NCBI RefSeq assembly: GCF_017255015.1
Contig: NZ_JAFKCS010000023.1
Location: forward strand, 1 to 58,315
DNA length: 58,315 nucleotides
Source: Bowmanella yangjiangensis
GTDB taxonomy: Bacteria; Pseudomonadota; Gammaproteobacteria; Enterobacterales; Alteromonadaceae
Direction: 5' to 3'
A program made the translations under genes and the position numbers. The notes under the pieces are model-generated. The model was not told the DNA's origin. It saw only the letters and a program-made list of their open reading frames with translations, and did not search any database. Each line of letters opens with the position of its first letter. The stretch's first letter is position 1. Shown here in pieces: positions 1,476-15,816 of this stretch.

Positions 1476-3740
1476 ATGTTGAATAAAGATTTAGAGCAAA
1501 CGTTAAATCAGGCGTTTATTTTCGCTCGTGAGCATCGCCATGAATTTATGACGGTCGAGCATTTACTATTGGCACTGCTTGACAACAAAGCGGCTCGAGA
1601 GGCACTCAAAGCCTGTGGTGCCAATATCGATGTTATTCGTGCTGAGTTAACCGATTTTGTCAAAGACACTACACCATTGATTCTTGATGGACCTGAATCT
1701 GATCGTGAAACCCAACCAACCTTAGGTTTTCAACGCGTATTGCAACGCGCGGTTTTCCATGTGCAATCTTCCGGAAAAGATGAAGTGACTGGGGCCAATG
1801 TATTGGTTGCCATTTTTAGTGAGCAGGAATCCCAGGCGGTTTACATTCTTAAAAAGTCGGACGTGACCCGTTTGGACGTGGTGAATTTTATTTCCCATGG
1901 TGTATCGAAATCGGAAGAAGATCGCCCCTCACAGGTTGAACGTGAAGACGAACCGGGCGAAGTAGAAGAGGGTACATCTACCCTGGATAAGTATTCCACC
2001 AACCTTAATGTGATGGTTAAGGAAGGTAAGGTTGACCCGTTAATCGGCCGTGATATGGAGCTGGAGCGTACAATTCAGATCCTATGCCGCCGGCGCAAGA
2101 ATAACCCGCTACTGGTTGGTGAAGCGGGGGTGGGTAAGACGGCCATTGCTGAAGGCTTGGCATACCGTATAGTGCAAAAAGAAGTACCGGAAGTGATTGC
2201 CGACGCCACCGTTTATTCGCTGGATTTGGGCGGATTGCTGGCGGGTACCAAATACCGTGGCGATTTTGAAAAGCGGTTGAAGGCCATCTTGAAAGAGTTG
2301 GAGCGTGATGAGCACGCTATTTTGTTTATTGATGAGATCCACACCATTATTGGTGCTGGCGCTGCGTCTGGTGGGGTCATGGATGCATCCAACCTGCTGA
2401 AACCTAAGCTTTCCAGTGGTGAGTTGCGCTGTATTGGTTCAACTACGTATCAGGAATATCAGGGTATTTTTGAGAAAGACCGGGCGCTGGCCAGGCGTTT
2501 CCAGAAAATTGATGTGATAGAACCTAGTGTGGATGATACCACCAAGATCTTGATGGGATTGAAGTCTCGTTATGAAGAGCACCATGGCGTGCGCTACACG
2601 CACAAGGCTGTGCGCGCCGCTGCGGAGCTTTCTGCAAAGTATATCAATGAGCGTCATTTGCCGGATAAGGCCATTGATGTCATAGATGAAGCCGGTGCCA
2701 GTCAGCGTTTATTGCCCGTGTCAAAGCGCAAGAAAACCATTGGCGTGGCGGAGATAGAACAGATTATTGCCAAAATGGCGCGTATCCCTGAGAAGTCGGT
2801 GTCGGCTTCTGACAAAGAAACGCTTAAGAACCTGGACCGCAACCTCAAAATGGTGGTATTTGGCCAGGACAATGCCATAGAGACGCTTACAAACGCTATT
2901 CGCTTGTCTCGCAGTGGTCTTGGCAGCGAAACCAAACCCATTGGTAACTTCTTGTTTGCTGGTCCCACTGGGGTAGGTAAAACAGAGGTAACCCAGCAGC
3001 TTGCGAAAATCATGGGGGTGGAGCTGGTTCGTTTTGATATGTCTGAATATATGGAGCGTCATGCCGTCAGCCGGTTAATTGGCGCCCCTCCAGGTTATGT
3101 GGGCTTTGATCAGGGCGGTTTGTTAACGGATGCTGTGATTAAGCATCCGTATTCGGTGGTGCTGCTGGATGAAATAGAAAAAGCACATAGCGATATATAT
3201 AACATCCTGCTGCAAGTGATGGATCACGGTACCCTGACCGATAATAATGGACGTAAGGTAGATTTTCGTAACGTGGTGTTGGTGATGACCACCAACGCAG
3301 GTGTGCAGGAGACGGTGAGGAAATCTATTGGCTTTAAACAGCAAGATCACAGCCATGATGCACTGGCCGAGATAAACCGCATATTCAGCCCGGAGTTCAG
3401 GAACCGGTTAGATGGCATCATTTGGTTTAATCATCTTGAGGCTGACATTATTCTGCAGGTGGTCGACAAGTTCATTGTTGAACTACAGGTGCAGTTGGAT
3501 GCCAAAGGCGTATCGCTGGAAATTACTTCTGATGCGCGCGCTTGGCTGGCTGAGAAAGGCTATGACAAGGCGATGGGAGCGAGGCCAATGGCCAGGGTTC
3601 TGCAGGAGCACGTGAAGAAGGAGCTGGCCAATCAGTTGTTGTTTGGTGAGCTGTCTGATGGCGGCAGCGTTAAAATTGATGTGAAGGATGACAAACTGAG
3701 CTTTGATTACAGTATGAGTAGTTCAAAGGCTGAAGTTTGA
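1476..3740 (+). CDS. clpA: ATP-dependent Clp protease ATP-binding subunit ClpA
   Basis: A 754-residue AAA+ unfoldase that forms a hexamer and feeds substrates to the ClpP peptidase. The order is an N-terminal Clp repeat domain (about 1-145, the ClpS docking site), AAA module 1 with Walker A GEAGVGKT and Walker B LFIDEIHT, then AAA module 2 with Walker A GPTGVGKT and Walker [10 protein letters not shown], ending in the C-terminal ClpB-like domain. There is no long coiled-coil M domain between the modules, which separates ClpA from ClpB. A strong AAGGGG lies 6 bases before the ATG. The C-terminus is rich in Ser, Lys and Glu, as usual. A terminator follows directly. Confidence 0.97.
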
Positions 3741-3750
3741 AAAATGTAAA

Positions 3751-3775
3751 AGGCCCGTATAACGGGCCTTTTTTT
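3751..3775. terminator. Terminator between convergent clpA and infA
   Basis: An 8-bp perfect stem AGGCCCGT/ACGGGCCT with a three-base loop is followed by seven T residues on the plus strand, 10 bases after the clpA stop. On the minus strand it is preceded by A residues (TAAAA) and could also end infA transcripts. Confidence 0.85.
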
Positions 3776-3792
3776 ATCTTTCCGCGAAAAAA

Positions 3793-4011
3793 TTAACGAG
3801 CGCGGTAGATAATACGTCCTTTAGTCAGATCGTATGGGGTCATCTCGACTGTGACTTTGTCGCCGGTGAGAATGCGGATATAGTTTTTGCGCATTTTGCC
3901 AGAGATGTGCGCGGTAACCACGTGACCGTTTTCAAGCTCAACACGAAACATAGTATTTGGAAGGGTGTCCAATACCGTGCCTTCCATTTCAATACAGTCT
4001 TCTTTCGCCAT
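3793..4011 (-). CDS. infA: Translation initiation factor IF-1
   Basis: A 72-residue S1-like OB-fold protein with the canonical start [19 protein letters not shown] and end [13 protein letters not shown]-1 binds the ribosomal A site during initiation. It is convergent with clpA and downstream of bpt/aat on the same strand. In E. coli the serW tRNA gene lies between clpA and infA; no tRNA is visible here. The 222-base space before bpt (4012-4233) shows no gene I can support and probably holds the infA promoter. Confidence 0.97.
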
Positions 4012-4233
4012 CTAAAAAAATTACCTTTGTTTATCGCTAGTTACTTTCCGGTTTGGGGGAATTCCCAAGCAGAATGTGATGAATATTGTCGTTCCCAGGG
4101 GGCAAAGTCGTGTTTACCTGAAATTTCCTTATTACCAGGGAAGTTTTTCCTATCTGGTACCCAGAGAAATGCCGCGCAGATTTTGCCCAAATATACCGCC
4201 ACTGTAAAGCGTACTCTGGATTTTTTTACTTTT

Positions 4234-4929
4234 TCAGCCCTGATCTTGCTCTCGGTACCAGTTACCACGGATAAATTTCTCGTGAGGGTGGAAGCGGGAT
4301 TTGTAGTTCATTTTGTCACATTGATCTATTTGGTAGCCCAGATAAAGGTGCGCCTTACCTAAGCTTTGCGCCACCTCAATTTGTCGCAATATGGCAAGTG
4401 TGCCCAATGAAAGTGTTGACAGGTCGGGTTCAAAGAAAGTGTATAAGGCCGACAATGCCTGCTTGGTAACATCTGTAATGGCCAGGCCGACTAACTGCGA
4501 ATCCAGCCATAGTTCAAGATACAGAGGATTACCCCAGGGCGCTTGGGTAAAGGTATGATATTGCTCTTGTGAAGGCGGGTACATGCTGCCGTCTTGATGG
4601 CGCGCCGCAATATAACGGGCGTACATAGGGTAATACTCGGTTTTGTTCGTTTCCGACAACCGGTGTTCTATGTGCAGCGTGGCTTTTATTAGTTTTCGTT
4701 GTCCACGGCTGGGTTTGAATTGCGCAACGGGAATGCGTAAAGATTGGCAGGCATTGCATTGCGGGCAGTGGGGACGATAGACATGCTCACCGCTACGTCT
4801 GAATCCTGCACCGAGCAGATATTGATAATGTTCTACGCTTACCGGCGTGGCATCGGCCAGGACGATAAGCTGCTCGTCTTCCTCTGGCAGGTAACTACAG
4901 GTAAAGGGATGGGTGAGAGCAAACTTCAT
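4234..4929 (-). CDS. bpt: Aspartate/glutamate leucyltransferase (Bpt, arginyltransferase-like)
   Basis: A 231-residue member of the ATE family. The N-terminus has CSYLPEEDEQL (about 11-21) and then the CPQCNACQSLRIPV block (about 55-68), the cysteine-rich region of the family. The C-terminal half carries the GNAT-like fold with the segment YLGYQIDQCDKMNYKSRFHP. Bpt transfers leucine from Leu-tRNA to proteins with N-terminal Asp or Glu, creating ClpS substrates; it resembles eukaryotic Ate1, which uses arginine. It lies 8 bases after aat, in the same operon, and within 3 kb of clpS-clpA. Which amino acid it transfers cannot be decided from sequence alone. Confidence 0.93.
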   Translation of the reverse strand: MKFALTHPFTCSYLPEEDEQLIVLADATPVSVEHYQYLLGAGFRRSGEHVYRPHCPQCNACQSLRIPVAQFKPSRGQRKLIKATLHIEHRLSETNKTEYYPMYARYIAARHQDGSMYPPSQEQYHTFTQAPWGNPLYLELWLDSQLVGLAITDVTKQALSALYTFFEPDLSTLSLGTLAILRQIEVAQSLGKAHLYLGYQIDQCDKMNYKSRFHPHEKFIRGNWYREQDQG

Positions 4930-4937
4930 TCTGACGC

Positions 4938-5642
4938 TTACTCGTTAAGGCATTTTTTCTGCCAGCAATCGCTGCTAACCGACGAAGCAACGGCTGGTTT
5001 GAGTCTGCTTAAAAATTGCGAGCGGGGTATTTCTTTTACGCCTAAGCTGGCTAAGTGTGGGTTTTGCAACTGACAATCTATCAAGTCAAATGCCATCCCT
5101 TTTAGATAGTGAACTAAGTGAAAAAATGCCAGTTTGGAGGTGTTGCTTCGCAAGTGAAACATTGACTCACCGCAAAATATTTTGCCGATACTAACGCCGT
5201 ATAATCCCCCAACTAGTTCCTGTTTGTCCCACACTTCCACTGAGTGTGCGTGTCCTGCCTGGTGCATGGCCATATAGGCCTGAATCATCTGCTCAGTGAT
5301 CCAGGTGCCGTTAATATCTCTTGGTACTGAGGCACAGTGGCGGATGACTGCGTCAAAATCCGTATTCAGGGTGACTTGATAACGTTTCGACCTGGCCAGT
5401 TTGGCCAGACTTTTACTACAAATGAATTCATCCAGTTCCAAAATACCCCTTGGATCAGGGGACCACCATAAGATGGGCTCGCCCTGGCTGAACCAAGGGA
5501 AAATGCCATTGCTATAGGCCAACAAGAGGCGAGCGACAGTTAGATCACCACCAAAAGCCAGTAAGCCGTTTGGGTCCACTAATGCTAGGGTTGGATCAGG
5601 GAACTGCAGGCGTTGGTCGAGTTTATAGAAATGTTCGCTCAT
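4938..5642 (-). CDS. aat: Leucyl/phenylalanyl-tRNA-protein transferase
   Basis: A 234-residue L/F-transferase. It begins with residues LDQRLQFPDP and contains FGGDLTVARLLLAYSNGIFPWF (signature region, about 30-51) and WWSPDPRG. The central part has CGESMFHLRSNTSKLAFFHL. It adds Leu or Phe from charged tRNA to proteins starting with Lys or Arg, making them N-degrons for ClpS/ClpAP. It precedes bpt with an 8-base gap, so the two transferases are co-transcribed. The 38-base gap from trxB contains a GC-rich hairpin, so partial termination between trxB and aat is possible. Confidence 0.95.
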   Translation of the reverse strand: MSEHFYKLDQRLQFPDPTLALVDPNGLLAFGGDLTVARLLLAYSNGIFPWFSQGEPILWWSPDPRGILELDEFICSKSLAKLARSKRYQVTLNTDFDAVIRHCASVPRDINGTWITEQMIQAYMAMHQAGHAHSVEVWDKQELVGGLYGVSIGKIFCGESMFHLRSNTSKLAFFHLVHYLKGMAFDLIDCQLQNPHLASLGVKEIPRSQFLSRLKPAVASSVSSDCWQKKCLNE

Positions 5643-5654
5643 AGGCGGGAAAGA

Positions 5655-5672
5655 GGCAGGCTTATGCCTGCC
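5655..5672 (-). terminator. Hairpin between trxB and aat, possible weak terminator
   Basis: GGCAGGC (5655-5661) pairs perfectly with GCCTGCC (5666-5672) across a 4-base loop. On the minus strand it is followed by CTCTTTCCC rather than a clean T run, so termination would be partial at best. It may separate trxB from the aat-bpt-infA transcript or act as an RNA stability element. Confidence 0.35.
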
Positions 5673-5680
5673 TTCGAGGC

Positions 5681-6658
<978 letters not shown>

Positions 6659-6691: not shown

Positions 6692-8158
6692 CTATTGAGA
6701 TTCAAGCCGGCGCAAAAATTCCGCCATCACTTCGTAATAAAGGGCTTGCCCTAAAAACTTGTCTTCAACGCTCGAATCGATACTAGGGTTGTCATTGACT
6801 TCAATTACCGCCACCCGGCCGTCTTTGGTCTGTTTGACATCTACCCCGTAAAATCCATCACCAATCAGTCGACAGGCTTTCAAGGACGCTTCGAGGACCG
6901 GCTGTGGTACTTCATAGGTCGGCATGGTTTCAAAGCCACCCGTAGCGGCTTTCTTACCGTCATCATGGCGGTAAATCTGCCAGTGTCCTTTCACCATAAA
7001 GTATCTGCAGGCGTAAAGCGGCTTGTTGTTCAGTACGCCGATACGCCAGTCGTACTCGGTATATAGGAACTCCTGCGCTAAAACCAAGGCCGAAGTCTTG
7101 CTTAATTTTTTCATGGCATCTACCAACTCATCCATGTTGGTGGCTTTAAACATGCCGCGCGAAAAGGCCCCGTCTGGTATTTTCAACACGATTGGAAAGC
7201 CTAAATAATCAATGGCGTGCTGCAGGCTTTCCTTGTCAGTACGACTTAGTAACAAGGTTTTTGGCGTGGGAACCTTATTGGTTCGCAACAAATCGGCCAA
7301 ATAAACCTTATTGGTACAACGCAGAATAGAGGTTGGGTCGTCTATAACGACCATGCCTTCTGCTTCAGCCTTTTTGGCGAATCGATAGGTGTGGTGGTCA
7401 ATAGAGGTGGTTTCGCGGATAAAGAGTCCGTCGTATTCCGCCAGGCGCACATAATCACGCTTGCCGATGGTTTCCAGATTGATACCCAGCTTATCTGCAG
7501 CCTTAATAAAATTGTTCAGCGCTTTCTTGTCGCTGGGAGGCATGCTTTCTTCAGCGTTAACCAACATCGCCACATCATATCGATAGTGTTTGCGTGTCTT
7601 AGGCTTACGCCACAGGCGGTTACTGAATTTCTCCAGTGTGTTGGCTAAGAATTCCTGCTCGGCTTCATCGGTGATTTCTTTTAATGACAGGGTATGAACC
7701 TTTTCCAGGCTCCACTGGCCGTCATATTCCAGCGTGACTTCCAACACAGGAGCGGCAAAGCGTTCAAAAATGTTTTTGGCCAGTTCGGCAAACTCGGTTT
7801 GCAAACATTCACCTAAAAAGATGCGGAATGTGGTCTGGGTGTCATTACCCGCTGGCTTTAACTTAGCAATAGATTTTGCGACTTCTTCGAGCTTTAGTGT
7901 GTAAAGCTTCTTACGACGCAAATCGTTAAGTACGCTGATATTGGGGATCACTTTATGCCCCCGGGCCTCCGCCAGCAAAGAGCAGTAGTAACCGCGTCCC
8001 AGCGCCCGCTTGTTGCGACAAAAATTGAGGATCCGTACCGTTTGATCGGCGGGGATATCGGTTTTGGCCAGGTATTGATCAAAGGAGATTACTTCTCGAC
8101 TGGGGAAGTAGGGAGCCCAATCGTCCAGGTCGTCCACGACCACAAAGTATCCAGACAT
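6692..8158 (-). CDS. RimK-family ATP-grasp ligase with N-terminal RLAN-type domain
   Basis: A 488-residue protein in two parts. Residues 1 to about 190 resemble the RimK-like ATP-grasp N-terminal (RLAN) domain, with a conserved segment FCRNKRALGRGYYCSLLAEA. Residues about 195-488 form a RimK-type ATP-grasp ligase: FPIVLKIPDGAFSRGMFKA is the nucleotide-binding loop and VIEVNDNPSIDSSVED holds the C-terminal metal-binding Glu and Asn. RimK-like enzymes form amide bonds, typically adding amino acids such as glutamate to a carboxylate; the substrate here is unknown. It is divergent from a GNAT-peptidase fusion gene across 212 bases. Family papers on amidoligases place this ligase in such neighbourhoods. 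It is not the ribosomal S6 modifier RimK, which is about 300 residues and lacks the extra N-terminal domain. Confidence 0.85.
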   Translation of the reverse strand: MSGYFVVVDDLDDWAPYFPSREVISFDQYLAKTDIPADQTVRILNFCRNKRALGRGYYCSLLAEARGHKVIPNISVLNDLRRKKLYTLKLEEVAKSIAKLKPAGNDTQTTFRIFLGECLQTEFAELAKNIFERFAAPVLEVTLEYDGQWSLEKVHTLSLKEITDEAEQEFLANTLEKFSNRLWRKPKTRKHYRYDVAMLVNAEESMPPSDKKALNNFIKAADKLGINLETIGKRDYVRLAEYDGLFIRETTSIDHHTYRFAKKAEAEGMVVIDDPTSILRCTNKVYLADLLRTNKVPTPKTLLLSRTDKESLQHAIDYLGFPIVLKIPDGAFSRGMFKATNMDELVDAMKKLSKTSALVLAQEFLYTEYDWRIGVLNNKPLYACRYFMVKGHWQIYRHDDGKKAATGGFETMPTYEVPQPVLEASLKACRLIGDGFYGVDVKQTKDGRVAVIEVNDNPSIDSSVEDKFLGQALYYEVMAEFLRRLESQ

Positions 8159-8370
8159 GCTGACTAATGCCTTAGACGCCTGTTAGCGTCAGATAAGAGG
8201 TATAACAAATTCGTCTGCTTATTGTGCCCGACAAGGACATTATGCAGACCGCTAAAATACACTAAAACAAGTGTTGCAATAATAGTTTTAAACGATTGGC
8301 TTGTCTTGTATTTGCATATTGCAGTTTCTGAGTTTAAGCCTAAACTATCGCGACGCATTTTTGCGAGTCT
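8159..8370. promoter_or_regulatory. Divergent control region between ligase and GNAT-peptidase genes
   Basis: These 212 non-coding bases must carry promoters for both flanking genes. I see an AT-rich core at about 8260-8330 and a small inverted repeat GACGC/GCGTC at 8175-8190 just upstream of the ligase start. No confident promoter hexamers could be picked out. Confidence 0.4.
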
Positions 8371-9474
8371 ATGTTGTTGAACACACTTGTTATTCGACCT
8401 GCTCAACTGACTGATATCTCCGATTTAGTCACGTTGGAAAAAGCCAGCTTTACGACGGACAGAATTTCCCGTCGCAGTTTTACCTATTTTATTCGTAAAG
8501 GGCATTGCTCACTGATAGTTGCCTACGATGGTCAGCACTTGGCGGGTTATGCGCTGGTGCTCTACCGCAATGGCACTCAGCTCGCCAGGCTATACTCTAT
8601 TGCCGTATCTGATGCTAGCCGCGGTAAAGGCGTGGCTCAGCAGTTGCTCAATGACGTCGAGCAGCGCGCTTCAGAAGAGTTGTGCTTGTTTATGCGTCTT
8701 GAGGTTCGGGTAGATAATCAGGCTGCCATCAACCTCTATCAAAAACTCAAGTACCGTCCGATTGGTAGGGTTGAAGGGTATTACGAAGACGGTGGCGATG
8801 CGCTGCAGATGGAGCGCACTTTGCGTCCCACTTCCCTAGGCAAACAGCCCAGCATTCGCTACCAACAAACGACAGACTTTACCTGCGGTCCGGCAAGTTT
8901 GATGATGGCTATGCATAAACTCGATACACGCTATCAAATGTCCATGGCCGAAGAGATTCAGATTTGGCGTGAGGCGACCACTATCTTTATGACGTCCGGT
9001 CATGGCGGATGCAGCGGCTTTGGTTTGGCATTAAGTGCCTGGCGTCGTGACTACAAGGTACATTTGTACGTGAATCAGACCAATGTGCCATTTATCAACA
9101 GTGTTCGCGATCCACAAAAAAAGGTGGTGATCGAAGAGGTTCACAAGCACTTCCTCCAACAGTTGCAAGAAACGCAAGTGGACATCCAGTATACGCCGCT
9201 GACCTTAGCCAAGTTGGATGAATATCTGCAGCAAGGAGCGGTGTTAGTGAGTTTGATCAGCATGTGGCGGCTAACGCGCGACAAGGCACCACATTGGGTG
9301 TTAGTGACAGGGGCTGACCAGAATTGTGTCTCTATTACCGATCCCGAGCGAGACTATGAAAGTTGGCAGACGGAAATGGACTTTACCAATGTGCCTGTGA
9401 GCCGGGAAGAATTTATAAAAATGGCCTCTTTCGGCAGAGATAGGCTAACCAGTACCTTGGTGTTATACCGATAA
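8371..9474 (+). CDS. GNAT acetyltransferase fused to a C39-like cysteine peptidase
   Basis: A 367-residue two-domain protein. Residues about 3-152 are a RimI-like GNAT domain with the acetyl-CoA motif SDASRGKGVAQQLL and a typical NQAAINLYQKLKY helix. Residues about 165-367 are a papain-fold peptidase of the C39 type: Cys172 in DFTCGPASL, His308 in APHWVLVTGAD and Asp324 in SITDPE give an intact triad. C39 peptidases normally cleave double-glycine leaders within ABC exporters; here there are no membrane or ABC domains, so the role is cytosolic. The divergent neighbour is an ATP-grasp amide ligase, so the pair plausibly makes, trims and acetylates a peptide or modified protein. The substrate is unknown. 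The start is the first ATG in frame; Shine-Dalgarno is weak. Confidence 0.85.
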   Translation: MLLNTLVIRPAQLTDISDLVTLEKASFTTDRISRRSFTYFIRKGHCSLIVAYDGQHLAGYALVLYRNGTQLARLYSIAVSDASRGKGVAQQLLNDVEQRASEELCLFMRLEVRVDNQAAINLYQKLKYRPIGRVEGYYEDGGDALQMERTLRPTSLGKQPSIRYQQTTDFTCGPASLMMAMHKLDTRYQMSMAEEIQIWREATTIFMTSGHGGCSGFGLALSAWRRDYKVHLYVNQTNVPFINSVRDPQKKVVIEEVHKHFLQQLQETQVDIQYTPLTLAKLDEYLQQGAVLVSLISMWRLTRDKAPHWVLVTGADQNCVSITDPERDYESWQTEMDFTNVPVSREEFIKMASFGRDRLTSTLVLYR

Positions 9475-13665: not shown

Positions 13666-15816
13666 ATGTTGTGGCAGGGGCAGGGTATCGAGGTACTTGA
13701 GCAATCCGCATCCCTTCATGGGGTGATGGTTAATTGTGAGAAAGCGCATCATTTGTTTGCCCAAGGCGATCTGAATACCACCTTGTATCGTTTGGTGAGT
13801 GGTTCGGCAGTTTTGCAGTTGCGCCAGCAGGATACCACAGTGAATGCCCTGGATTTACAACCAGGACAGTGGGTAGGCCAAGCCATTTTGGCAGGCGAAG
13901 AGAACCTCGGTTTTGGCCTGCTATGTACCTCTTCGTGCCTGTTTGAATCTGTTGATTGGTCGTTAATCGACAAAGCCAAGCTGGATGAGGTGGCTGTCCA
14001 CTTTGAGCCCCTGCATCATAGGCTACATACCATCAGATTAGTGCTGCAGACCTTCTTGCGCAGTTATCCGAATGTGTCTGCCGAGTTTCTGCAGGAACTG
14101 ATTCAAAGTGCGCATTTTTCTTATCTAAAGGAAAATCAGACCCTGTTTGAGCCGGGCGATTCGGCTCAGGTGATGTATTTTTTACTGAGCGGAAAAATAG
14201 ATGTCTATGCCGGTGACAAGGACAGTCTGAGACGGGTAGGGGAGATTTTCCATGGTGAAGCCTTTGGCGAAATGTCACTGTTCAGCAACCAAGTGCGAAC
14301 CGTGCGTTTGGTGGCAACGCGTTCCTGTGCTTTGATTAGTCTGGACAGACAGCAGTTTGATCGGCTGTCGGTAGAGTTTCCCTGGCTCAGCACTTATATC
14401 GTCTCCAGTTTGATTGATCGCATCAAAAAACAAAGTGAGAAAAACAGTCGTAAGGTAAAACCGGTAAACCGCCTGGTATTAGAATGTGGTCGGGATGGTG
14501 CGCACGACACAGCTAAACAACTTAAGTCCATTTTATGGCAGAGTGCCTTTGGCGTATTCAGCGAAGAAGAGGTGTGCAGAAAATTTGCATACCGTCAGAT
14601 TAGCGATATCAACCATGCAACCTTGATTGATCATCTGGATGCCCGCGAACAAGACAATGCTATCAATCTGTATTTTTCCAGTCTGGATGCTGATGACTGG
14701 ACCAAGATCTGCCTCGAACGGGCCGATGAGGTATGGTTACTAGCCGAAGAAAGTCATGGGGTTCAGAATCTGCTGGCCTGGCTGTCTAAATTCAGCCAGA
14801 TGTTTTCCTGGCAAAAGCAGCGAAAACATCTGGTGCTTATCCACCCTCGGGTTGCCCATATCAGTGCAACCAGCCAATGGCTGGATGTTCTGGGCATTCG
14901 TCAGCATTTTCATCTGCAGCAGGACAGCCGCCTGGATGTGGAACGCCTAAGTCGCTATCTGACTGACCAGTCGCTGGGTTTAGTCTTAGGTGGCGGTGGT
15001 GCCCGAGGTTTTGCCCAGATTGGCATTTTTAAAGCTATGCAGGAAGCCGGTGTTAATGTGGATTGGGTGGGAGGTACCAGTATGGGCTCTATTATGGGCG
15101 GCTGGATTGCATTGGGATGGAACAGCGAGCAAATTATTGTCGCCATAAGGCGCTTTTTTGTGTCGGTAAATCCCCTCGGAGATTACACCTTACCGATGAT
15201 TTCGCTATCGAAAAGTCAGCGTCTGGATAAGCTATTGCATGAAGGATTTGGCGACATTCAAATTGAAGAACTGCCGTTACCGTTTTTCTGTGTGTCGTCG
15301 GATATGAGTACCGCTGAAGAACGTGATCATGAGCGAGGGGTATTGTGGCGTGCGATTCGTGCCAGTGTGTCTATTCCTGGGGTTATTGCCCCGGTAATAG
15401 ACGGCGGCCATTATCTGGTTGATGGCGGCCTGTTCAACAATTTGCCCTGCGATCTGATGCGTCAGCGCAATCGTGGGCCTATCGCCGCCATCGACGTGAG
15501 TCCAGAAGAGGATTATCTGACCCAACTCAGTGAGGTGCCGTCGCCTTGGCAATTGCTGGTTAATAAATTGCTAGGCAGAGAACAGCCCAAGGTTCCCTCA
15601 ATACTGCATACCTTACTGCGTTCCTCTATGCTGGCCAGCGCACAGCGGCAGAAAGCCAACCGAGAGATGGTAGATTACTTTATCCAGCCGCGTATCGAAA
15701 ACGTCGGTATGCTGGACTTTCGCCAAGCTCAGCGCATCATTCAGATTGGCTACCAGGAAGGGCTGGCCTACCTGCAGCAAGGCCATATGGCTTCACTGGT
15801 CAGTCAGGCCTCTTAA
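13666..15816 (+). CDS. Patatin-like phospholipase with two cyclic-nucleotide-binding domains (NTE type)
   Basis: A 716-residue protein related to neuropathy target esterase and Mycobacterium Rv3239c-like proteins. Two cNMP-binding-fold domains are visible: a divergent one at about 25-110 and a clearer one at about 140-255 with GEAFGEMSLFSNQVRTV. The C-terminal patatin domain has the oxyanion GGGGARG, nucleophile Ser472 in GTSMG and Asp586 in VDGGLFNN, so the Ser-Asp dyad is intact. It likely hydrolyses lysophospholipids or phospholipids, possibly under nucleotide control. No membrane helix is evident. AGCAGGGGCAGG precedes the ATG. Its stop codon abuts that of the convergent thioesterase gene without a single spacer base. 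Confidence 0.93.
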   Translation: MLWQGQGIEVLEQSASLHGVMVNCEKAHHLFAQGDLNTTLYRLVSGSAVLQLRQQDTTVNALDLQPGQWVGQAILAGEENLGFGLLCTSSCLFESVDWSLIDKAKLDEVAVHFEPLHHRLHTIRLVLQTFLRSYPNVSAEFLQELIQSAHFSYLKENQTLFEPGDSAQVMYFLLSGKIDVYAGDKDSLRRVGEIFHGEAFGEMSLFSNQVRTVRLVATRSCALISLDRQQFDRLSVEFPWLSTYIVSSLIDRIKKQSEKNSRKVKPVNRLVLECGRDGAHDTAKQLKSILWQSAFGVFSEEEVCRKFAYRQISDINHATLIDHLDAREQDNAINLYFSSLDADDWTKICLERADEVWLLAEESHGVQNLLAWLSKFSQMFSWQKQRKHLVLIHPRVAHISATSQWLDVLGIRQHFHLQQDSRLDVERLSRYLTDQSLGLVLGGGGARGFAQIGIFKAMQEAGVNVDWVGGTSMGSIMGGWIALGWNSEQIIVAIRRFFVSVNPLGDYTLPMISLSKSQRLDKLLHEGFGDIQIEELPLPFFCVSSDMSTAEERDHERGVLWRAIRASVSIPGVIAPVIDGGHYLVDGGLFNNLPCDLMRQRNRGPIAAIDVSPEEDYLTQLSEVPSPWQLLVNKLLGREQPKVPSILHTLLRSSMLASAQRQKANREMVDYFIQPRIENVGMLDFRQAQRIIQIGYQEGLAYLQQGHMASLVSQAS

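What the first reader, a model, noticed from the sequence alone, without database searches (positions are those of the whole stretch)
6692..9474. Head-to-head amide ligase and GNAT-C39 peptidase: candidate peptide-tag or small-peptide system
Seen: an ATP-grasp ligase (RimK-like, with an extra N-terminal domain) and a GNAT acetyltransferase fused to a C39-like cysteine peptidase share one 212-base control region. The peptidase has Cys172, His308 and Asp324 in place and no ABC transporter or membrane part. Known: RimK-like enzymes add amino acids to carboxylates, and C39 enzymes cut leader or peptide bonds. Inference: the three activities could build, acetylate and trim a peptide tag or peptide metabolite. 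No substrate is known to me and no precursor is visible in between. This is my best candidate for an undescribed pathway.
Basis: partly seen in the sequence, partly recalled or inferred. Interest (0 to 1): 0.75.

Follow-up and report, generated by a model that had tools for sequence, protein, structure and literature searches.

The report
Conserved peptide-ligase, acetyltransferase and peptidase cassette
Two neighbouring genes encode an enzyme that probably joins amino acids and a two-part enzyme that probably acetylates and cuts peptides; the pair is kept together in many bacteria, seems to have been foreseen by comparative genomics, and still has no known product.

Summary
Window 8158-6692(-) is a 488-aa RLAN + RimK-like ATP-grasp ligase; 8371-9474(+) is a 367-aa GNAT + DUF3335 (C39-like) protein. 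They are divergent, 212 bases apart, with the expected catalytic residues.

In all 39 fetched class loci holding both, they lie within 1.3 kb.

The third partner asked for exists in relatives: DUF2817 (M14-like), M14, ArgE or DUF155. Of 20 class genomes with RLAN but no strong DUF3335, 6 have a related GNAT beside the ligase and 12 a standalone C39, usually with GCS2 and an FGase-like gene. The ligase is constant; capping enzyme and peptidase are swappable.

It is probably not an undescribed pathway. GNAT-DUF3335 fusions are noted in print citing Iyer et al. 2009, which I could not open; I recall it and the Pfam RLAN note as predicting peptide synthesis from this pair. My searches listed no experiment on it. 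Most likely a cytosolic cassette makes and trims an N-acetyl-capped peptide; the substrate is unknown.

The parts
6692..8158 (-). RLAN + RimK-like ATP-grasp amide ligase, 488 aa
   Evidence: PF14401 1.3e-43 at residues 27-171, PF08443 2.1e-10 at 283-463; K284, K326, D440, E453, N455 invariant in 45 aligned; AlphaFold2 mean pLDDT 86.6; Foldseek neighbours Ddl, ArgX, LysX, RimK
8371..8826 (+). GNAT domain of N-terminal-acetyltransferase (RimI/Ard1) type, residues 1-152 (boundary approximate)
   Evidence: NCBIfam rimI 84.0 bits, under its cut-off 86.4; nearest solved structures Ard1, NAA10, RimI; E111 and Y138 invariant in 49
8836..9471 (+). DUF3335 papain-fold (C39-like) cysteine peptidase domain, residues 156-367 (boundary approximate); Q166, C172, H308, D324
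   Evidence: PF11814 6.7e-81 at residues 164-365; catalytic residues conserved
8159..8370 (.). 212-base divergent control region
   Evidence: conserved mainly in Bowmanella pacifica, in patches in B. denitrificans and Aliiglaciecola; one sigma-70-like site against 0.6 expected and one terminator-like site against 0.2 expected by chance, so no promoter is established

Best explanation
It is a cytosolic peptide-building and trimming cassette. The RLAN/RimK-type ligase spends ATP to activate a carboxylate and add an amino acid or amine to it. The NAT-type GNAT half caps the alpha-amino end with acetyl. The C39 half cuts, or transfers, a peptide bond of the same product, as remodelling or turnover. 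In relatives M14-fold or M20 hydrolases can share the work. Shown: the families, the expected catalytic residues, conserved pairing, and exchange of partners around a constant ligase. Inferred: all the activities, that they act on one product, that the product is a small N-capped peptide or amino-acid conjugate rather than a protein terminus, and the order of steps.
For: Families and active-site residues. Pairing: 43 of 44 class genomes, Fisher p 1.6e-33; 22 of 22 order genomes (the two samples share a few genomes, the window's among them). In 39 of 39 fetched class loci holding both, the genes lie within 1.3 kb: 35 directly adjacent, 4 with DUF2817 between. In 72 of 80 named-genome loci RLAN is in the same locus, at most 1.35 kb away, and 5 of the other 8 genomes hold RLAN elsewhere. 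In 20 class genomes with RLAN but no strong DUF3335: 12 have a standalone C39 beside it (10 of them also GCS2 and FGase), 1 has GCS2 only, 6 have a GNAT without C39, 1 has none of these. The 21 such GNATs examined in all score 83-196 bits on the fused-GNAT profile, against 43 for the organism's own RimI. The standalone C39 is homologous to the fused one (hhalign 95.5%) with Gln, Cys, His and Asp kept in 12 of 12. Exchange partners (GCS2, FGase, ArgE, DUF2817 with weak AstE/AspA similarity) mostly belong to families acting on small N-acyl or amino-acid substrates (functions recalled).
Against: No substrate or product is known, and nothing here measures activity. NAT-type GNATs and RimK usually act on protein termini (recalled), which favours a tag instead. 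The own genome lacks DUF2817 and DUF155; I did not look there for M14, ArgE or GCS2. Many fused-type loci have no third partner in view (20 of 39 class, 46 of 80 named). ArgE and M14 neighbours may only reflect local gene order. The distribution is patchy: 211 of 274 class genomes lack RLAN. 3 of 80 loci come from genomes in which no RLAN was found (all three are MAGs by title), and G154 is the one class exception.
Confidence: 0.45

Rival explanations
1. Protein-terminus modification system: the ligase adds amino acids to the C-terminus of a specific protein, the GNAT acetylates an N-terminus, and the C39 half removes the tag, by analogy with RimK/S6, RimB and RimI/S18.
For: Solved relatives of the two catalytic parts include RimK bound to RpsF, LysX/ArgX and Ard1/NAA10/RimI. 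RimB counteracts RimK tagging in vitro (passages of PMC12239564). In the Bowmanella clade the pair lies next to aat, ate and clpA, which act on protein N-termini or N-degron substrates (roles recalled).
Against: The genome has separate canonical RimI (114 bits) and RimK (289.5 bits). The GCS2 and FGase swap points to small substrates. The N-degron neighbourhood is in view in only 5 of 80 loci. No conserved protein partner other than the enzymes listed was recognised nearby.
Confidence: 0.28
2. N-acetylated dipeptide osmolyte or storage compound, logically like NAGGN (GNAT plus ATP-grasp plus peptidase) or mammalian NAAG.
For: Same enzyme combination as the NAGGN trio (recalled); GNAT plus ligase is the usual core. 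The fused GNAT has a faint hit to the NAGGN synthetase model (23.8 bits against a cut-off of 569).
Against: That hit covers 65 residues of generic GNAT. The ligase has no hit to the NAGGN model at E 0.001. NAT-type GNATs prefer peptides (recalled).
Confidence: 0.15
3. Cell-wall peptide recycling or modification: a Ddl-like ligase plus C39 and M14-type peptidases rework muropeptides.
For: Foldseek ranks Ddl first for the ligase. DUF2817 and M14 are zinc-peptidase-like families. Mutants lacking the secreted Rlo proteases show osmotic and cell-shape defects that mutations in the ATP-grasp gene rloC rescue (PMC12239564, abstract and passages).
Against: The sequence profile ranks RimK and LysX first, with Ddl weaker. 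The GNAT cap has no clear role there.
Confidence: 0.08
4. A graspetide-like ribosomal peptide system, in which ATP-grasp ligase and C39 peptidase mature a genetically encoded precursor.
For: C39 peptidases with ABC transporters head the table of families linked to graspetide ATP-grasp loci (table passage of PMC8939145).
Against: No ABC exporter is fused to or matched in the pair, and no conserved short ORF was found in 72 examined loci.
Confidence: 0.04

Closest known systems
RLAN ATP-grasp / GNAT-papain-like peptidase neighbourhood predicted by Iyer, Abhiman, Burroughs and Aravind 2009 (paper not held; recalled, also through the Pfam RLAN note)
   Same: As recalled: the same two genes, with M20 and GCS2 neighbours and a predicted role in peptide biosynthesis
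   Different: Added here: counts, GNAT-only and C39B-GCS2-FGase alternatives on a tree, and DUF2817, M14 and DUF155 partners (I cannot say which of these were in that paper)
RimK / RimB (S6 glutamate ligase and retropepsin)
   Same: RimK-like ATP-grasp ligase set against a peptidase
   Different: RLAN domain present, a C39 instead of an aspartic peptidase, a GNAT added; 85.4 bits on rimK_fam with cut-off 143.4
RloABC of Pseudomonas aeruginosa
   Same: ATP-grasp protein with a dedicated protease
   Different: Rlo has a secreted aspartic protease and a membrane inactive transglutaminase (passages); neither is among the neighbours identified here
R2K.3 ATP-grasp family with GNAT neighbours (PMC4431377)
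   Same: ATP-grasp gene in operons with GNAT genes (passage); our ligase just passes the R2K_3 cut-off (26.7 against 26.3 bits)
   Different: Reported from other phyla; the words RLAN, papain and peptidase do not occur in that paper's main text; RLAN and RimK match our ligase far better
NAGGN synthesis trio
   Same: GNAT, ATP-grasp, peptidase (recalled)
   Different: Different domain fusion; no family-level match
LysX/ArgX with carrier LysW
   Same: ATP-grasp fold and N-protection logic; ArgE neighbour in some loci
   Different: No conserved short ORF such as a LysW-like carrier was found nearby

Membership tests
RLAN-type RimK-like ligase (PF14401 + PF08443) | RLAN domain followed by ATP-grasp domain, both above Pfam cut-off | tested here: met
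   148.7 and 41 bits against cut-offs 25 and 21
RLAN-type RimK-like ligase (PF14401 + PF08443) | Gene neighbour is a GNAT fused to a papain-like peptidase (recalled from Pfam) | tested here: met
   window itself; 39 of 39 fetched class loci holding both genes
Peptidase_C39-like DUF3335 (PF11814) | Score over cut-off and Cys-His-Asp with oxyanion Gln | tested here: met
   271.1 bits against 25; residues 166, 172, 308 invariant and 324 in 48 of 49
Peptidase_C39 (PF03412), leader peptidase of ABC exporters | Score over cut-off 22 and fusion to an ABC transporter | tested here: not met
   17.5 bits, no ABC domain
RimK (S6-L-glutamate ligase) | Score over NCBIfam cut-offs | tested here: not met
   19.4 bits against 331 and 85.4 against 143.4
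RimI (S18 alanine acetyltransferase) | Score over cut-off 86.4 and best copy in the genome | tested here: inconclusive
   84.0 bits as a protein, 86.7 as a genome stretch; another copy scores 114
NAGGN synthetase | TIGR03103 cut-off 569 | tested here: not met
   23.8 bits
Graspetide (ATP-grasp RiPP) locus | Precursor peptide gene nearby | tested here: not met
   no conserved short ORF within 2.5 kb in 72 loci; a distant precursor is not excluded
Any of the above | Catalysed reaction and substrate | not testable with these tools
   needs biochemistry

The most novel reading that the evidence does not exclude
A widespread, still uncharacterised bacterial pathway makes an N-acetyl-capped (or, in one clade, gamma-glutamyl-type capped) peptide or peptide tag. 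The RLAN ligase is its constant core; capping enzymes and peptidases have been exchanged around it several times.
Probability: 0.3. Interest if true: 0.75.

Novelty: new member of a known kind. Interest (0 to 1): 0.42.

Why it matters
RLAN occurs across Gammaproteobacteria (63 of 274 sampled genomes) and beyond (30 of 49 phylum-sample hits lie outside the class), and the pair is present in several Pseudomonas species, some of them easy to work with. Yet I found no known product. Its conserved partners narrow the chemistry enough for a direct knock-out and metabolomics test of a prediction that, as I recall, dates from 2009.

Tried and rejected
Looked for a precursor peptide or carrier protein: intergenic alignment and small-ORF clustering gave nothing conserved beyond near relatives. 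One short minus-strand ORF (window 8164-8406, 80 aa) has counterparts in 3 of 6 close loci (window included), but its sequence diverges and it runs over the control region; I treat it as chance.

Tested whether the GNAT or ligase is simply the organism's RimI or RimK: rejected, separate canonical copies exist.

Tested whether the pair is tied to the N-degron genes beside it: in view only in the Bowmanella-Aliiglaciecola-Lacimicrobium-XY-R5 group, 5 of 80 loci.

Tested mobile origin: in the plasmid collection 21 of 72,556 records match, 8 over at least 80% of the protein, all in replicons of 1.1-2.0 Mb, Azospirillum (7) and Tistrella (1). In phages 7 records match the ligase and none covers 80% of it.

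Cluster c1 first looked like a partner family of 18 loci; I saw that it mixed a real gene (ArgE) with antisense ORFs, so neighbours were redone by homology. One search's labels miss two GNAT cases that one search shows (L052 typed 'none', L058 'noRLANfull'); the count of 6 is.

Structural neighbours of the C39 half could not be seen: the 50 rows shown are nearly all acetyltransferases by title. The fold of the RLAN domain alone was not searched.

Literature: nine full-text searches listed no experimental work on this pair; most listed papers were seen as listings only. Passages were read in PMC12239564, PMC12096838, PMC10318531, PMC3765264, PMC8939145 and PMC4431377; no paper was read whole.

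Full report
Observation. The minus-strand protein has an RLAN domain (PF14401) and a RimK-like ATP-grasp domain. The plus-strand protein has a GNAT domain and DUF3335, a papain-fold 'Peptidase_C39 like' family. AlphaFold2 models are confident overall (mean pLDDT 92.9 and 86.6; residues 184-192 of the ligase are under 50). By profile and by fold the GNAT half is nearest to N-terminal protein acetyltransferases, Ard1, NAA10 and RimI. The ligase's catalytic part is nearest to RimK and LysX by sequence, and to Ddl, ArgX, LysX and RimK by fold. The C39 half gave no visible structural neighbour.

Co-occurrence. In 274 class genomes, 63 have RLAN and 48 have a DUF3335 match. Four of those 48 are weak (E 1.7e-5 to 1.9e-4) and I set them aside. 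Of the 44 strong ones, 43 also have RLAN (Fisher p 1.6e-33). The exception (G154) sits on an 11.4-kb contig. In 119 order genomes, 22 strong DUF3335 genomes (a 23rd match is weak and set aside) all have RLAN, out of 25 RLAN genomes; the order and class samples share a few genomes, the window's among them. Of the 43 class genomes, 39 were fetched with both genes on one contig: 35 have them directly adjacent and 4 have DUF2817 between, all within 1.3 kb; in 3 the genes lie on different contigs; the last is the window. Of the other 8, 5 carry RLAN elsewhere and 3 gave none. The pairing is therefore not refuted; it is patchy across the class, and in the window's own family three sampled genomes lack both genes.

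Partners. DUF2817, an M14-like family with a weak AstE/AspA match, is in 29 of 80 named loci, in 28 of them touching or close to the GNAT-C39 gene on its strand; in 4 of 39 class loci; and in 11 of 20 fetched loci outside the class (20 of the 30 available were fetched). M14 flanks 4 and ArgE 10 of the 39 class loci. 20 of the 39 show none of the partners looked for. DUF155 is enriched with RLAN (20 of 36 strong DUF155 genomes have RLAN against 63 of 274 overall, p 4.8e-6) and is the next gene in about ten loci. The window's genome has neither DUF2817 nor DUF155. Genome-wide, DUF2817 is not tied to RLAN: of 10 class genomes with a strong DUF2817, 4 hold RLAN.

Exchange around the ligase. Among 20 class genomes with RLAN but no strong DUF3335, 12 have a standalone C39 upstream (10 followed by GCS2 and an FGase-like gene), 1 has GCS2 alone, 6 have a GNAT without C39 (one of them, L052, in an ORF shared with a partial RLAN in a frame-broken locus) and 1 has none of these. 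The standalone C39 aligns with the fused one and keeps its residues in 12 of 12. Outside the class, of 20 fetched loci 13 have the fused gene, 1 has a C39 piece cut by the contig end, and 6 have GNAT alone. The 21 GNATs without C39 score 83-196 bits on a profile of the fused GNAT (the three lowest, 83-85, come from one genus); the organism's canonical RimI scores 43 and three other GNATs of the same genome 16-41. On a tree of 98 ligases the GCS2 type is one side of a branch with 100% SH-aLRT, while fused and standalone GNAT types interchange repeatedly (11 changes over three labels; at least 7 forced by well-supported branches for the GNAT label; quick tree, midpoint root). So the ligase and a capping enzyme are the stable theme, and the peptidase is an add-on.

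Local setting. In five close relatives (Bowmanella pacifica, 92% identical in GNAT-C39, B. denitrificans, Aliiglaciecola, Lacimicrobium, XY-R5) the order clpA, ate, aat, trxB, ligase / GNAT-C39, yfbV is kept. It is not in view in the other 75 named loci, so I do not tie the function to N-degrons. The window genome is probably a Bowmanella relative (inference from identity).

Mechanism. Established knowledge of the families (recalled): ATP-grasp ligases make acyl-phosphates and then amides; RimI/Ard1-type GNATs acetylate alpha-amino groups; C39 enzymes cut peptide bonds. The conserved combination and the swaps to GCS2, FGase, ArgE and DUF2817 point to one peptide-like product that is capped, extended and cut. 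Small molecule versus protein tag is not settled; I favour the small molecule because most exchange partners belong to families acting on small substrates, and because no precursor or carrier ORF is conserved nearby.

What is known. [quoted passage not shown] 2009. That paper is not held. From recall, it and the Pfam RLAN note describe this neighbourhood and propose peptide biosynthesis. PMC12239564 (abstract and passages) describes the parallel RloABC and RimK/RimB systems. PMC4431377 (passages) reports another ATP-grasp family, R2K.3, in operons with GNAT genes. PMC8939145 (passages) treats graspetides. PMC12096838 and PMC3765264 (passages) cite the 2009 paper; the words GNAT and C39 do not occur in the first, nor GNAT and peptidase in the second. 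Nine searches listed no experiment on this pair. Hence a new member of a known, predicted kind.

Noticed in passing
window 1476-6634: clpA, then ate, aat and trxB on the other strand, directly beside the ligase: an N-degron locus kept in the five closest relatives and not in view in the other 75 named loci
   Followed up: partly
L223-L228 (genomes G436, G440, G515): Three genomes of about 6-7 Mb carry two RLAN ligases each: one copy beside GNAT-C39, the other beside a standalone GNAT
   Followed up: partly
L003, L006, L018, L037, L097, L154, L206, L213, L221, L238: DUF155 (RMND1-like) gene next to the ligase or GNAT-C39 gene on the same strand, within about 50 bases or overlapping
   Followed up: partly
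control genome: Methanosarcina acetivorans has DUF3335 but no RLAN match, so the peptidase family also exists apart from the ligase
   Followed up: no
window 13666-15816: 716-aa protein with a CRP-like cyclic-nucleotide stretch and an RssA-like patatin stretch
   Followed up: no
L110: A MAG labelled Bacteroidetes holds a GNAT-C39 46% identical to the window's, beside an RLAN ligase; may be mis-binning
   Followed up: no
phage records H16-H19: Four Methylophilales phage Melnitz records carry a RimK-like ATP-grasp stretch similar to the ligase's catalytic part
   Followed up: no
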